This document shows positions 11,650 to 18,865 of a DNA stretch of 64,000 bases, in pieces. Numbering within the stretch: position 1 is the first letter of the stretch; every line of letters starts with the position of its first letter. The stretch is from Malassezia japonica (taxonomy: Eukaryota > Basidiomycota > Malasseziomycetes > Malasseziales > Malasseziaceae). Under the pieces are notes generated by a model that saw nothing but the letters and a program-made list of their open reading frames with translations, ran no database searches and had not been told where the DNA came from. Location of the stretch: contig NC_083370.1 in NCBI RefSeq assembly GCF_029542785.1, forward strand, positions 744,001 to 808,000. Reading direction: 5' to 3'. A program made the translations under genes and the position numbers.

Positions 11650-12523
11650 ATGCAGTCAGGACCGGACGAGCGGCCCGGCGTGGCGTGGCCACGGCTGGAT
11701 AATGTGCCGCTACCCCCCGCACCACTACCATACGATGGTACGTTACTGAGCTCACGCAGAATTCCTGGTGCCTTCCGACGAGCCGCCGGTGCTGGACAAC
11801 GAGCTGCTCGCGCAGCTGACCAGTGTACTGCAAACCCATGCGAGCGGCAGCCCCTTGCGATCGCGCGCCGCGACGCCCCACGCCCGGTCCGAGGACCGCA
11901 AGACCCAGGGCGAGGAGCAAGATACCGGGCGCCAGCTCTTTAGCGAGAACGAGTCATCGTTCCTCTCGCAGTTCTTGCAGAGCCTGGACCGGGACCTGGC
12001 GCCGCTGCCGCTGCCGAGCACATCCACGCAACCCCCCGAGGCGCCCGGGGAGACGAGCAACGAGGCCCCTCCGTCCCCGTCCGAGCACGCGCCCAAGCGG
12101 CGGCGGCACGTCGTCTCGGAGCAGCGGAGACGCAACCAGATCCGCGAGGGATTTACGCACCTCGCCGAGCTGCTGGATACCGGGCGGCTGTACGGCGCGC
12201 GTGCGCTGGGCCTGAATTCAGGCGCAGGCACCGGCGTCGAGGACGAGGACCTCGACGACCGCACCGATGCCGAGGAGGACCTCTCGCTGGGGTGCGACGA
12301 GGAAGAGGTCCAGCGGCGGCGAAAAAACGCGCAGCGTCGCGCACGGTCTCGCGCCAATGCGGGCAAGCAAGCCCGCGGCCGCGGCCGCGGCCGTGGTGGA
12401 AGTGCGGGTTGCGCGGGCAGCAAGAGCGCTGTCCTCTTCCAGGTCGTCGACTTGCTCTACTGGCTCGAGCAGCGCAACGCGGCGCTCCGCCAGGATATCA
12501 GTGTGCTGTCCACGGCAGTCTAG
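11650..12523 (+). CDS. bHLH transcription factor with an expanded loop
   Basis: Two exons, 11650-11737 and 11760-12523; 22-nt intron; 283 aa. The basic region and first helix are KRRRHVVSEQRRRNQIREGF, with the His-Glu-Arg positions expected for E-box binding. The second helix is near the C-terminus (SKSAVLFQVVDLLYWLEQRN). Between them is an insert of about 85 residues that is first acidic (VEDEDLDDRTDAEEDL) and then Arg/Gly-rich, far longer than the usual loop of 5-20 residues. The family is like Ino4/Cbf1/MLX factors. The 217-nt region upstream separates it from haspin and has an AT-rich TATA-like stretch near 11535. Confidence 0.75.
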
Positions 12524-12551: not shown

Positions 12552-15500
12552 TTACAGCGCTTCATAGGCTCCGCGATCCGTGCGGCCCAGCGCGCTGTCC
12601 CACAAACGCGTGACGCTGCCGAGAAGGCCCGGCGCAGCGGCGCGGCGGTCGTGCGCCGCCTGGCGGATCGACTCGCGCTCCACCGCCTCGAGGAAGCGGG
12701 GGTGGGTGCTGATCGAGCGGCGCACGCGGTTCACCTCGGGGTCCGAGCCGGCCGGCGACGCAAACTCCTCCTCGCCCTCGCCCATGTGCTGCGGCACCGG
12801 GGCGCCCACGTCGCCAAAGATGGCGTCCATCTCTTCGAGCGGCACGCCCTGCGTCTCCGGGTAGAAGTAGTACACGACCAAGAACGAGCACAGGCAGAAA
12901 AAGGCGTGCAGGATATAGAGGCGCCACTTGATCTGCTCCTGGAGCATCGGCGTGAGCTGGCCGACGATCCAGTTAAAGACCCAGTTGGTCGCCGCGCTGA
13001 GCGACGCGCCCTTCGCGCGGAAGGCGAGCGGCATAATCTCTGGCGTCCACGCCCAGGGAATCGGGCCCCACGAGTAGCCGAATGCGGCGTTGAACAGGAC
13101 GACGCACACGACGACGGCCTGCGGCGTATATGGCTTTTCGGCGCGCAAAAACATGCCGCACAGGCCGAGCATCAGCGCACAGAACAGCGCACCCGAGAGC
13201 AGAATGGGGCGGCGGCCCCACGTGTCGACCAAGAACCACGTAGGGACGGTGGATAGTACGTAGATCACCGCATTCACGCCCGTCATGAGCAGCGCGTCGC
13301 GGCCGACCCAGCCCGCGCTCTCAAAGACGAGGGGGGCGTAGTACGAAATGACGTTGATGCCGTTCAGCTGCGCAAACATCTGCGACGACATGCCGATCAG
13401 CGTGCGGTTGCGCAGGCGCGACCACATCGCGCGGTACGAGCGGTCGCCTTGCGCACGCATTTCGAGCACGCTCTGGCGAATCTCCCAGAACTCGAGCTTG
13501 GCACGCACGTTGCGGGGGTCGCCGTTGTTGTGCAGGTTCGTGAGCACGAGCATCGCCTCGTCGTTCTGGTCCTTGTCCAGCAGCCAGCGCGGGCTCTCGG
13601 GGAGGAGCACTGAGCCAAAAGCCAGCGTCAGGCCAATGACGGGCTGCAGCAGGAGCGGTGTGCGCCACGCGGCGTTGCCGCGCAGGAAGCTGCAAAAGTA
13701 GTCGAACCACACCGAGGCCATGTAGCCCACAATGTTGCCGGTGAACTCGATGCACGCCAGCTTGCCGCGGTTCTCGGCAGGAGACACTTCGGACTGGTAC
13801 GTCGGCACAATCATGCTCAAAAAGCCCACGCCAAAGCCCGAGATGATGCGCCCGACGACCATGGCCGTGTAGCCGTTCGCGAGCGTCTGGATCGCGCCGC
13901 CCAGCGAAAAGATAACGGCGCCCCACACGAGCACCTGCTTCCGTCCAAAGGTGTCGGCCAGCACGCCGCTCAGCAGCGACGTAATCAGCGCACCAACCTC
14001 GAGGATCGCGACCATCGTCCCAATCTGCGTCGCCGTGGGATGCGCAAAGTACGCGACAAACGAGGGGTGCGTCAAAATGCCGCTCATCACGCCTTGGTCG
14101 TACCCGAACAAAAACACACCCAAACTCGCAAAGCAGGTGACAAAGAGCATCAGCGCGTCGCCACGAATGCCGAGGCGCGAGAGGGGGTTCGTGCTCTCGT
14201 CCAAGTCGACATTCGGCGGCCGGACACCTTGCAGCGACGGGCGTTCGCCAAAGAACTCGGGCGCGTACGGCAGCGAGGCCGAGCGGCGCAGGCGCGGCTC
14301 CTCGCCCGCGCTCGCAGGCAGGGCAAGGGGGTACGCCGGCGTCGATCCGTTCATGCGCCCCGTGACGATCCGCTCCTCCGGCTCGGTCCAGTCGTCCAGC
14401 GGGTCGTGCTTGACCATATCCGGCGTGCCGACCATGGTGCTGGTCTCGACGTGCATGTCTTCGTCCTTGAGCGCGTCCGAGACGCGCGGCGTCGTCGTGC
14501 CGGCCGCGCCCCAGCGCCGCGGCGCGCCACTCGTAATCACCGTCTCGGTGGCGGTGGACAGGTCGCCGCCAATGTCGCGCTCGCGTGCGCTCTGCGCAAT
14601 CTCGGCCTTTTCGGCGCGCAAGCGGTCCGCCTCGCGGATGCCCCACGAGTCGCGGAAGATGTAGTGCACCTCTTCCAGCGAGAGCTGGCGCGTATCCGGG
14701 AAGCCAAAGATACACAGCACCGCGCCGAGCGCACACAGACCCGCGTAGAAGCCAAACGCACCCGACGGCGTGATGGCGTTGCTGAGCGACAGGTACGTCG
14801 CATTGATCAGCAGGTTGCAGCCCCAGTTTGTCGCCGTCGCGATACTCGCAGCGATCGCGCGAGTCTCGATCGAAAAGAGCTCGCCTTGCTGCCACGGCAC
14901 ATTTCCGAGGCCGAGCGCATAAAAGAGGACGTAAATAATAAACGCGACAATCAGCAGGTCGGCCCACACCTTGTTGATCGGCATGTCGGGCGAGATTTTC
15001 GACGGGTTGCCAGGCACCATAAAGTTGAAGCAGATACTCGCAAAGACGAGCGCCGCCGACATGATCGGCACCGTGTACACGATTGCGCGGCGGCGGCCTA
15101 CAATGTCGATAAACCAAAAGGCAATGACGGTGCCGAGGAAATTGGTCACGCTCACGACCATCGACACCGCGACCGGGTTCTTGAGGCCGACGCTCTCAAA
15201 GATCGTCGCGCTGTAGTACATCAGTGTGTTGAAACCAGAGAGCTGCTGCAGCGCTTGCAAACCGGCAGCGATGGCGAGCGCACGCGCGTTGGGGCCGGTA
15301 AACATGAGACGGATACGCTTGTACAGGGGCAGCTGCGTGGTGCCGCCCTGCACCTCTTGCACGCTCTTGCACACCTCTTCGGCACGCATGCGGCAGTACT
15401 CTTCGGTGGCATTCGGAAAGATGCGCCGGAACGTGCGGTTGACCTTGTCTACACGCCCGCGGCGCCCGTCGAAGCGCGGCGACTCGGGCAGCCAGGCCAT

Positions 15501-16230
15501 GCTAAAGAGCGAGATGATGGCGGGAATCGCACCGCCGGCCACCGTGTAGCGCCAGCCGCCTTTGACGTTCACAAAGCCGGCTCCGACGCCGTTCGCAATC
15601 ACCTGGCCAAGCGTGAGGAAGGCGACGTTGAGCGTCACGAGGCGCCCACGGAGGTGCGTCGGCGCAAGCTCGCCGATCCACAGCGGCACAATCATACTCG
15701 CGACACCGACACCGATACCCACGATCAGGCGGCCGACAATCAGCGTCGCCTTGTTGTGCGCCGCGGCTTGGACGATGGCGCCGACGATAAAGACGACGTT
15801 TGCGAGCGCAATCACGACCTTGCGCCCGAACCAGTCCGACGGGAACGCCGCGCCGAGCGAGCCGATCAGCGCGCCGAGCGACGTTGCGGACGTCGCCATC
15901 TCTTTTTCCCAGTCCGACATCGGACTGCCGAGGTCCGTTCCAACACTCACGAGAACAGACGAACTGTGTCAGGACATCGACGTACATGTATCCCGTATCG
16001 TAACCAAACAGCGAGCCAGAAAGACCCGCACAAACAGTCAGCATCCACAGCGTCCAGCCAGCACGCTCCATGCCCGCGCGGATCAGCGCAATGGACTCGG
16101 GCGAAGTGCCGAGTTGGGCAGTTATAGGCGCCTCTTGTGGCACATCTTCCTGCGGCTCTCGCACCGCCTCTTCAGGCACATGCGCCGCAAGGTTCTTCAT
16201 CGCAATGGAGCCCTCGTCAGCGAGGGACAT
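12552..16230 (-). CDS. double MFS sugar transporter: inositol-type permease fused to hexose-type permease, 1218 aa
   Basis: Two exons, 15986-16230 and 12552-15963; 22-nt intron. The spliced frame has no stop for 1218 codons. The first unit (about residues 50-510) has FGYDTGYI, SDWFGRKVVIA, PLWIGELAPTHLRGR, GLQALQQLSGFNTLMYYS and FPDTRQLSLEEVHYIF, as in inositol (ITR-type) permeases. A polar linker (about 510-680) follows. The second unit (about 685-1130) has FGYDQGVMSGILT, LADTFGRKQVLV, PESPRWLLDKD, AQLNGINVISYYAPLVFE and YPETQGVPLEEMDAIF, as in hexose or polyol permeases. Each half looks like a full 12-helix transporter. No typical intron or stop separates the halves. It may move two sugars or act as an obligate pseudo-dimer; this is inference. 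Confidence 0.85.
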
Positions 16231-16445: not shown

Positions 16446-18865
16446 CTAGTTCGCCCATGACTCGAGGCCACTGTACGTCACGCCGGGCGTGCCCGTAAGT
16501 TCGCCCATGACGACACCCTCCTCGCCCGACTGCTTGAGCTTCGCAAGGGTCGCGTCGACCTTGTCGGCCGGCACGACAAGCACCATGCCGATACCGTTGT
16601 TAAAGGTGCGCGCCATCTCGGCGGGCTCGACCTGACCCGCCTTTTGGATCCATGCAAAGAGCGGCGGGCGTGTCCAGGCGGTGAGGTCAATGTGCGCTCC
16701 GAGCCCCTTGGGCAGCGTCCGCGGCACGTTCTCGGTAAAGCCGCCGCCGGTAATGTGCGCGAGGCCCAAGACGTCGTGCTCGGTCGAGTGGAGAACGTGC
16801 GCGAGGGCCTTGATGTAGATGCGCGTCGGCGCGAGGAGCGCGTCGCCGAGCGTCGCCGGCGTCTCGACGCCGTTCACCACTGCGCCCGGCTTGCCCCATG
16901 GGCACGGCGCGTCGAGGGGGATGTTGGCACGCGCCGCGCACTTGCGCAGGAGCGAGTATCCGTTCGAGTGTGCGCCGCTGCTGCGCAGGCCGATGAGCTT
17001 GTCGCCAGTGCTCATCTCGCTCAGCTTGGGGAGGATCGCAGTGCGCTCGACTGCGCCGACCGCAAAGCCCGCGACGTCGTACTCGTCGCCGACGTACATG
17101 CCCGGCATCTCGGCCGTCTCGCCGCCGATGAGCGCGCACTCTGCCTGACGGCATCCCTCGGCAATGCCTGCGATGACGTCCGAGGCGGTGCTCACGTCGA
17201 GCTTCGAGCACGCGTAGTAGTCGAGGAAGTAGAGCGGCTGCGCGCCCTGCACGACGAGGTCGTTGACCGACATCGCCACGAGGTCGATGCCGATCGTGTC
17301 GTGCTTGTGGTAGTCGAGGGCGACGCGCAGCTTGGTCCCGACGCCGTCCGTGCCGGAGACCAGCAGCGGGTCGCGGAACTGGACCGCGCGCAGGTCAAAC
17401 ACACCGCCAAAGCCGCCGAGCGAACCCATGCAGCCCATGCGCTGCGTGCTCTTGGCGTGCGGCTTGATGCGCTCGACCAGTGCATTGCCCGCATCAATGT
17501 CGACGCCGGCCGCAGCGTACGTCAGCCCCTGCGCCTTGGCCGCGTGCAGCGCGCGGTGCGCAATGTCGCGGCGGAAGACCATCTTGTCAAAGTGGATCGC
17601 GTCGATGCCCGCGTACGCGAGCTTGAGTGCGTCCTCGAGCGTCGCACCGGTCGCCGACACGGCGAGCACACGGCCGCCGGCGGTGACCACTTCGCCCTTT
17701 TCGACGCGCGTGCCGGCGTGGTAGACCGTGACGCCCTCCGGCACCTTGTTAAAGGTGATCGGCAGGCCCGTGGGGTACTTGCCGGGGTAACCGCCACTCG
17801 CCACGACGACGCTCACCGCGTAGCCCGGGCGGATGGAGAACTCGGCGCAGTCGAGGCGGCGCTCGACACACGCCATAAGAATGTCGGCCAGCGCGCCGGC
17901 CGGCTCGAGCAGCTCGAGCACGGCCTCGGTCTCAGGGTCGCCAAAGCGCACGTTGTACTCGAGCACCTTGGGGCCCTTGGGCGTGAGCATGAGGCCGACG
18001 AAAAGCATGCCGACAAACGGATAGCCATCCTTGCGCATACCCGCAATGGTCGGCAGGAGAACCTCGTTGCGGATCGTCTCCTCCATACCCGGCGCGGTGC
18101 CGTCGGGCGTCGGGCAGTACGCGCCCATGCCGCCCGTGTTCAGGCCCGTGTCCCCCTCGCCGATGCGCTTGTGGTCCTGGCAGCCGGGCAGCGCACGCAC
18201 CGTGTAGCCGTCCGAGAAGGCGAGCACCGAAAGCTCGGAGCCCTCGAGGCGCTCTTCGATGACGAGCGAGTCGCCCGCGTCACCAAACACCTTCTTCACG
18301 AGGAGGTCCTCGACGCCCTCGCGCGCCTCCTCCTCGGTCTCTGGGAGGAGGACGCCCTTGCCGCCCGCGAGGCCGCTGGCCTTGAGGACGACGGCGTGCG
18401 CGCCGCCGAGCTCCTTGATGTACGCCATGCACGCCTCGACCTCACTCGAGGTGAAGGAGCGGAAAGCGGCGGTGGGAATCTTGTGCCGGTCCATAAACTC
18501 CTTGGCAAACTTCTTGGAGCCCTCCATCTGGGCGGCGGTCGGCGACGGACCAAAGACTGGGATGCCGACTGCGTGAGCAAAAACAACGTACCCTTGCGGA
18601 ACGCCTCCTCGACGCCCTCGACGAGCGGCGCCTCGGGGCCCGGCACAACAAGGTTCACCTTGTTCTCGCGCGCCCATTGCGCAATGGCGCTAAAGTCGCC
18701 CGACGCTTTCGGTTCGGCGAGGTTCGAGCAGCGGTTGCCCAGCACGGCCGTGCCGCCGTTTCCGGGCGCCACATACACGTGTTCCACACGATCAGAGCGC
18801 AGGAGGTGGAGCGCAAGCGCGTGCTCGCGGCCACCCGCGCCGAGAATCAGAGCCCGAATCGACAT
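16446..18865 (-). CDS. ADE5,7: bifunctional GAR synthetase / AIR synthetase (purine synthesis)
   Basis: Two exons, 18592-18865 and 16446-18568; intron 23 nt; 798 aa, normal for the fungal bifunctional enzyme. The N-terminal half is phosphoribosylamine-glycine ligase: MSIRALILGAGGREHAL, VVPGPEAPLVEG, the ATP-grasp segment LKASGLAGGKGVLLP and GLNTGGMGAYCPTPDG. The C-terminal half is AIR synthetase: LLVSGTDGVGTKLRVA, ALIGGETAEMPG, SSGAHSNGYSLLRK and FNNGIGMVLVV. They carry out steps 2 and 5 of de novo purine synthesis in the cytosol. It is divergent from RRB1, with 86 nt between starts. Confidence 0.97.

What the first reader, a model, noticed from the sequence alone, without database searches (positions are those of the whole stretch)
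12552..16230. One reading frame encodes two complete MFS sugar transporters (about 24 helices)
An inositol-permease-like unit and a hexose-permease-like unit lie head to tail in one uninterrupted frame of 1218 codons, with a polar linker of about 170 residues. Both halves keep the GRK/GRR, PESPR and PET/PDT-type signatures, so neither looks degenerate. No stop and no typical short-intron signal lies between them. Single-chain double MFS sugar carriers are very unusual; it could be a dual-substrate or obligately paired transporter.
Basis: partly seen in the sequence, partly recalled or inferred. Interest (0 to 1): 0.85.

Follow-up and report, generated by a model that had tools for sequence, protein, structure and literature searches.

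The report
Two sugar carriers in one chain
A skin yeast of the genus Malassezia has two complete sugar-carrier units, one inositol-type and one glucose-type, joined end to end in a single gene, and the same joined gene was found in many of its relatives and in two other fungi, so it looks like an old, maintained double transporter rather than an error.

Summary
A minus-strand gene (16230-12552) encodes an inositol-permease-type sugar porter, a linker of about 160 residues and a glucose-type sugar porter, with no stop between the units. One correction: the frame is not uninterrupted from 16230. The first 81 codons lie in another raw frame and are joined by an inferred 22-nt GT-AG intron at 15985-15964; removing it gives exactly 1218 residues and fits the M. 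yamatoensis protein.

A protein search listed 22 full-length doubles: 20 fall in a Malassezia clade (the window's own, 5 named, 14 unnamed) plus Pseudozyma flocculosa and Violaceomyces palustris. The linker is mostly free in sequence, but one motif, near GRMxGS(T/S)PAxP, is shared between most Malassezia rows and the two other fungi and was not seen in 192 single-unit N-termini. For Ustilago, Sporisorium, Testicularia, Tilletia and Exobasidium only single glucose-type units appeared in the capped lists. I read this as one old fusion inside Ustilaginomycotina with later losses of the first unit; two fusions are not excluded. Most likely it is a covalent pair of two proton-coupled carriers in 1:1 ratio. 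Transport, substrates, mRNA and protein are not shown here. Closest precedent: the fused NarK1-NarK2 nitrate/nitrite carrier.

The parts
15986..16230 (-). exon 1: ATG, polar N-terminus and first helix of unit 1 up to GYDTGY
   Evidence: ORF; spliced product; compare the N-termini of other doubles
15964..15985 (-). inferred 22-nt intron, GT...CTGAC...CAG
   Evidence: the junction fits the M. yamatoensis protein P0004. No cDNA was available
12552..15963 (-). exon 2, including the stop codon at 12552-12554
14637..16062 (-). unit 1 (N unit), inositol-permease-type sugar porter; contains the intron
   Evidence: PF00083 323.1 bits and TIGR00879 311.2 bits on the exon-2 part; nearest single-unit relatives include proteins named myo-inositol transporter
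14151..14636 (-). linker, 162 residues, mostly disordered in the model apart from a helical start
14316..14360 (-). conserved linker motif GRMNGSTPAYPLALP
   Evidence: 0 of 2000 shuffles for P. flocculosa, 2 of 2000 for V. palustris
14274..14288 (-). RRSAS in the linker, looks like a basic-residue-directed kinase site (reading recalled)
   Evidence: RRS present in the linker of 19 of 22 doubles, absent in P0020, P0021, P0022
12810..14150 (-). unit 2 (C unit), glucose/hexose-type sugar porter
   Evidence: PF00083 365.6 bits, TIGR00879 342.5 bits; single-unit relatives in Ustilaginomycotina
12555..12809 (-). cytosolic C-terminal tail with RRSIS at 12708-12722
   Evidence: RRSIS in the tail of 17 of 22 doubles; also in single-unit Testicularia, Sporisorium and Ceraceosorus proteins

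Best explanation
It is a real single gene for one polypeptide of about 1218 residues made of two sugar-porter-family carriers in tandem: an inositol-permease-type unit, a disordered cytosolic linker, and a glucose-type unit. It arose by one fusion in an ancestor of Malassezia and the Ustilaginomycetes, was kept in every Malassezia-clade row seen, and several related lineages later lost the first unit. It most likely works as a covalent heterodimer: both units are proton-coupled importers with separate substrates (a polyol such as myo-inositol, and glucose or another hexose), made in fixed 1:1 ratio, sent to the membrane together and turned over together, with the linker and tail as the place of regulation. 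Shown here by sequence: the open frame, the two units, the recurrence in relatives, no close paralogue of either unit found in the genome. Inferred: the intron, common origin of the fusion, losses, proton coupling, substrates, joint trafficking and regulation.
For: Two units in one frame. 22 proteins of 1122-1362 aa cover 96-100% of the query, among 577 hits of which the best 120 were listed; 14 of the 20 Malassezia-clade rows are unnamed rows of sources lgn, ena or jgi (taken by me for metagenome assemblies), so the architecture does not seem to rest on one annotation pipeline. No single-unit row falls inside the Malassezia clade. Both units are constrained: mean pairwise identity among 19 Malassezia-clade rows is 0.71 (unit 1, exon-2 part) and 0.79 (unit 2), against 0.35 for the linker core. 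The linker motif is shared with P. flocculosa and V. palustris. All 22 first units share states such as PDTR, where at least 96% of 27 single-unit relatives have PETA, and lie on one side of the tree. Position-specific GC in the linker is coding-like, 0.70/0.56/0.89. The TM1 aspartate (FGYD) and the QQLxGFN or QLNGIN motifs are kept in the units; that the aspartate marks proton symport is recalled from XylE and STP10. Elsewhere in the genome no match to unit 1 or unit 2 exceeds 37% identity, apart from one 44% piece of 89 residues.
Against: No RNA or protein data. A profile of the whole Malassezia linker did not find the P. flocculosa and V. palustris linkers above shuffles (E 0.68 and 1.5, best shuffle 0.012); linker-core identity to those two is only 0.23; two of three linker blocks tested were not significant, and the blocks were chosen after I had seen the alignment that includes these two fungi. 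10 of 22 rows lack the M of the motif and six Malassezia rows hardly show it. In the unit 2 tree the doubles are not one clade (p-AU 0.00039), so either losses or two fusions are needed. The unit 1 tree has no Ustilaginomycotina or ascomycete single-unit rows that I can recognise, so it cannot test a common origin of the fused unit 1, and it carries a long-branch warning. Unit 1 has 24 positions replaced in all doubles, so its substrate may have changed. A match to inositol-phosphate synthase is present, so inositol import need not be essential. The structure model is of low confidence (mean pLDDT 63.1, pTM 0.46).
Confidence: 0.6

Rival explanations
1. Only unit 2 is a working carrier; unit 1 is a diverged, non-transporting sensor or regulator of unit 2 (a built-in transceptor or chaperone).
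For: Of 180 columns nearly invariant in 32 single-unit relatives, unit 2 has none replaced in all doubles; of 246 such columns (27 relatives), unit 1 has 24, including PETA to PDTR. Unit 1 is less conserved (0.71 against 0.79). Single-unit relatives of unit 2, but no Ustilaginomycotina single-unit relatives of unit 1, were named in the capped lists.
Against: Unit 1 is still 71% identical across Malassezia and keeps FGYD, GRK/GRR, PESPR, QQLxGFN and PWQQGELF. The comparison rows for unit 1 that I can place by name are Agaricomycetes, so part of the 24 may be lineage difference; from memory, yeast Itr1 has the same GYDTGYIS stretch.
Confidence: 0.2
2. One gene but two separate proteins: internal initiation, re-initiation or cleavage in the linker.
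For: The linker holds methionines, in 12 of 22 rows one at the M of the motif; it is disordered in the model and poorly conserved.
Against: No methionine position in the linker is shared by all rows: P0002, P0004, P0005, P0008, P0010, P0011, P0012, P0014, P0015 and P0020 lack the M of the motif.
Confidence: 0.15
3. Two independent fusions of adjacent genes, one in Malassezia and one in the P. flocculosa / V. palustris line.
For: Unit 2 of the doubles is not one clade and the whole-linker profile gave no significant match.
Against: Shared linker motif; shared states of unit 1 in 22 of 22; same order of the same two units.
Confidence: 0.12
4. Artefact: a hidden stop or frameshift, or merged gene models.
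For: False merging of neighbouring genes is suspected for one M. globosa annotation set (PMC4634964, passages).
Against: The window is raw DNA with an open frame, and the same architecture appears in 21 further proteins from several sources.
Confidence: 0.02

Closest known systems
Fused NarK1-NarK2 nitrate/nitrite transporter of Paracoccus denitrificans (PMC5217062; passages read)
   Same: Two different MFS carriers in one chain of 24 predicted helices, variable linker between helices 12 and 13; the paper argues that the linker most likely only tethers the two and that tethering could favour heterodimers, and reports functional interaction of the units.
   Different: Bacterial, nitrate/nitrite, not sugar porters. 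Sequence relation to it was not tested here.
Fungal myo-inositol transporters of the sugar porter family (rows so named in Ceratobasidium, Steccherinum)
   Same: Unit 1 belongs to TIGR00879 and its nearest single-unit relatives include proteins with this name.
   Different: Listed ones are single units of about 510-580 aa; unit 1 here differs at 24 positions in all doubles and is fused.
Single-unit glucose/hexose-type sugar porters of Ustilago, Sporisorium, Testicularia, Tilletia, Exobasidium, Ceraceosorus
   Same: Unit 2 is their relative; an RRSISSHPR-like tail motif is shared with several.
   Different: The named rows are single units of 601-726 aa; the linker motif was not seen in the single-unit N-termini tested.
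PFL1_03364 of Pseudozyma flocculosa and IE53DRAFT_185741 of Violaceomyces palustris
   Same: The same two units in the same order over 1353 and 1362 aa.
   Different: Longer linker (227 and 214 residues by the same cut), without RRS; no function in the record names.

Membership tests
Sugar porter (SP) family, MFS, unit 1 | Score above the curated cut-off of TIGR00879 and PF00083 | tested here: met
   exon-2 part: 311.2 bits (cut-off 237.8), 323.1 bits (cut-off 22.3)
Sugar porter (SP) family, MFS, unit 2 | Score above the curated cut-off of TIGR00879 and PF00083 | tested here: met
   342.5 and 365.6 bits
Sugar porter (SP) family, MFS, unit 1 | C-terminal PETxG signature (recalled as an SP signature) | tested here: not met
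   PDTRQ here; D at that place in 22 of 22 doubles. The family models are still passed well above cut-off
Sugar porter (SP) family, MFS, unit 2 | C-terminal PETxG signature (recalled) | tested here: met
   PETQG
Fungal myo-inositol transporter, unit 1 | Closest to proteins named myo-inositol transporter rather than hexose carriers | tested here: inconclusive
   Nearest single-unit hits include such names, about 48-50% identity to P0121 and P0179; 24 positions replaced in all doubles
Fungal myo-inositol transporter, unit 1 | Proton-driven inositol uptake | not testable with these tools
   TM1 aspartate kept; no assay
Glucose/hexose proton symporter, unit 2 | Relatedness to single-unit hexose carriers and conserved motif residues | tested here: met
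   No position replaced in all doubles against 32 singles; best solved relative by sequence is Sugar transport protein 10, E 4.2e-53
Glucose/hexose proton symporter, unit 2 | Glucose uptake | not testable with these tools
   no assay
Fused double-MFS carriers (NarK1-NarK2 kind) | Two MFS units in one chain with a variable linker | tested here: met
Fused double-MFS carriers (NarK1-NarK2 kind) | Functional interdependence of the units | not testable with these tools
   needs transport assays

The most novel reading that the evidence does not exclude
An ancient eukaryotic double sugar porter, fused once near the base of Ustilaginomycotina, in which the inositol-type unit regulates or senses for the glucose-type unit within one chain, so that polyol and glucose uptake are coupled by a covalent link.
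Probability: 0.2. Interest if true: 0.82.

Novelty: new variant of a known kind. Interest (0 to 1): 0.62.

Why it matters
Sugar porters are ordinarily single 12-helix chains (recalled), and whether such carriers act as independent units or as coupled pairs is an open point. A naturally fused pair of unlike partners, kept in a genus that uses lipids as its main carbon source and has lost many carbohydrate-metabolism genes (PMC4634964, passages), gives a ready system to test coupling, stoichiometry and cross-regulation. In this genome no close paralogue of either unit was found, so the fused gene may carry the main inositol-type and this glucose-type uptake of the cell.

Tried and rejected
Artefact (hidden stop, merged models): rejected because the raw frame is open and 21 other proteins share the architecture. 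Intron inside the linker: one simple pattern scan found none. Degenerate second copy: rejected, both units are constrained. Internal duplication of one carrier: rejected, the units are only about 26-30% alike and each has its own closest relatives.

Led nowhere or against: a profile of the whole Malassezia linker did not separate the P. flocculosa and V. palustris linkers from shuffles; two of three linker blocks were not significant in those two proteins, and the blocks were picked after seeing the joint alignment. Of ten literature searches, seven bore on sugar carriers of Malassezia or on double MFS proteins; their listings, some capped (one search showed 20 of 141, 10 of 45, 15 of 69), showed no report of a double sugar porter in fungi. 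I read passages of PMC4634964 and PMC5217062 and no whole paper; the library holds open-licence papers only. The DNA collections that I could still search hold, by their descriptions, no fungal genomes, so gene neighbourhoods in relatives were not read. The Pfam search of the neighbouring ORF 11768-12523 gave nothing.

Rows dropped before counts: P0002 left out of the identity means because its N-terminal part looks like an assembly chimera. P0219, P0220, P0221 and P0225 left out of the careful tree (all four were). P0219-P0221 start inside or close to unit 2 and may be ORF fragments of either type; P0225 was dropped without a good reason. The unit 1 tree used 27 of the 98 newly listed rows, the unit 2 tree 32 single-unit rows chosen.

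Full report
Observation. The minus strand carries a frame open from the stop at 12552 to a TGA at 15969-15971, 1132 codons from the GTG at 15950. PF00083 matches it twice, profile 46-452 and 2-452, and each half alone passes the curated sugar-porter cut-off of TIGR00879. ATG 16230 is in another raw frame. The junction agrees with the annotated M. yamatoensis protein P0004 at all but one residue of the stretch GYDTGYISSVLVSVG(T/S)DLG. There is no RNA evidence for the intron.

Linker. By the cut used the linker is 162 residues. Its codon-position GC is 0.70/0.56/0.89, close to that of the C-tail, 0.78/0.56/0.91; the units have 0.58/0.46/0.82 and 0.57/0.44/0.87. An open frame of this length occurs in 267 of 5000 base shuffles, so openness alone proves little. 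AlphaFold2 (23 sequences; mean pLDDT 63.1, pTM 0.46) shows two helical bundles, with residues 456-575 and the C-tail from 1032 below pLDDT 50, besides shorter stretches. Foldseek's best PDB matches are STP6, STP10 and XylE, target-normalised TM 0.83-0.85 over 465-488 columns, the length of one unit. By sequence the best solved relatives are GlcP for unit 1 and STP10 for unit 2.

Distribution. A search with the exon-2 product gave 577 proteins at E up to 1e-60, best 120 listed; 22 of these 120 cover 96-100% of the query at 1122-1362 aa. They are the window's own row, five named Malassezia (yamatoensis, vespertilionis, pachydermatis, cuniculi, sp. CBS 17886), 14 unnamed rows, Pseudozyma flocculosa and Violaceomyces palustris. 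That the 14 are Malassezia is read from the trees. Searching with the P. flocculosa N-terminal 797 residues returned the 22 doubles first and then single-unit proteins; the names that I can place are Agaricomycetes, and no Ustilaginomycotina single-unit protein is named in the best 120 of 996. Searching with its C-terminal 673 residues returned single-unit proteins of Testicularia, Ustilago, Sporisorium, Tilletia, Exobasidium and Ceraceosorus (best 120 of 1632). Absence of unit 1 in those lineages rests on capped lists and on proteins alone, not on their genomes.

Trees. Unit 2: 54 rows and, with four rows left out, 50 rows in a careful tree. Malassezia doubles form one clade (100/100), and P. 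flocculosa and V. palustris lie with Testicularia, Ustilago and Sporisorium singles (100/99). The 22 doubles as one clade are rejected (p-AU 0.00039; the group is defined by architecture, but a quick tree had been seen). Unit 1: 49 rows, with the 22 doubles one side of a branch (support 100) against 27 single-unit relatives; the program warns of long branches, and without recognisable Ustilaginomycotina or ascomycete singles this tree cannot test common origin. Together with the shared linker motif and the shared states of unit 1 this is best read as one fusion and later loss of unit 1 in some lines; two fusions are not excluded.

Linker motif. Three blocks conserved inside Malassezia, picked after the joint alignment had been seen, were tested against the linkers of the two other fungi. 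GRMNGSTPAYPLALP matched P. flocculosa (28.6 bits, 0 of 2000 shuffles as high) and V. palustris (15.4 bits, 2 of 2000), while the best of 192 single-unit N-termini reached 6.8 bits. DPLDDW (171 and 1155 of 2000) and RRSAS (113 and 458 of 2000) were not significant there. A profile of the whole linker was not significant either. Inside Malassezia the motif is altered or hardly visible in P0008, P0011, P0012, P0014, P0015 and P0020.

Constraint and residues. Among 19 Malassezia-clade rows (P0002 dropped) mean pairwise identity is 0.71 in unit 1, 0.79 in unit 2, 0.35 in the linker core and 0.42 in the tail; linker-core identity to the two other fungi is 0.23. Of 180 columns nearly invariant in 32 single relatives, unit 2 has none replaced in all doubles; of 246 such columns in 27 relatives, unit 1 has 24. 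Part of these may be lineage difference, since the unit 1 singles that can be placed are Agaricomycetes. Both units keep the TM1 aspartate and the TM7 glutamine/asparagine motifs, which by recalled knowledge of XylE and STP10 fit proton-coupled sugar import. RRS is in the linker of 19 of 22 doubles and RRSIS in the tail of 17 of 22; reading these as kinase sites is inference.

Genome. PF00083 gave nine matches in the 8.43 Mb genome, two of them this gene; 9 of 38 first-look candidates were scored. Direct searches found no further copy of either unit: the best other places by E-value are 29% (unit 1) and 33% (unit 2) identical, the highest identities 37% except one 44% piece of 89 residues. A match to inositol-phosphate synthase is present, as are inositol monophosphatase-type matches.

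Mechanism. Most likely a covalent pair of two importers: equal amounts, common trafficking and common turnover, with regulation through linker and tail. The nearest worked precedent is NarK1-NarK2, where the authors conclude that the linker most likely only tethers the units, that tethering could favour heterodimers, and where the units interact functionally though each alone can support growth (PMC5217062, passages). Nothing here measures transport.

Novelty. The double-MFS arrangement is known in bacteria. For sugar porters in fungi no report appeared in the listings of the seven searches that bore on it, some of them capped, in an open-licence library, which is a limited claim. Some of the proteins already sit in public databases under names such as hypothetical protein or carbohydrate:proton symporter. 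Hence a new variant of a known kind.

Noticed in passing
15964-15985 (-): A 22-nt inferred intron, very short for a spliceosomal intron. The unnamed relative P0003 begins just after the same place, which suggests that it shares the intron; rows such as P0008 and P0020 include the N-terminus.
   Followed up: partly
11768-12523 (+): Convergent neighbour ORF, 28 bases between the two stop codons. Its residues around RRRHVVSEQRRRNQIREGF look like a basic helix-loop-helix DNA-binding region (recalled), but Pfam gave no match.
   Followed up: partly
16446-18677 (-): Upstream neighbour is a GARS-AIRS purine synthesis gene, with 215 bases between its stop and the transporter's ATG.
   Followed up: no
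protein P0002: An unnamed protein whose first part follows P0020 and whose rest follows the window's close relatives; probably an assembly chimera.
   Followed up: partly
L006 (G000:C1:1233484-1234695) and G000:C6:13212-14252: Other sugar-porter matches of this genome have an in-frame TGA or TAG inside the match; introns and broken genes were not told apart.
   Followed up: no
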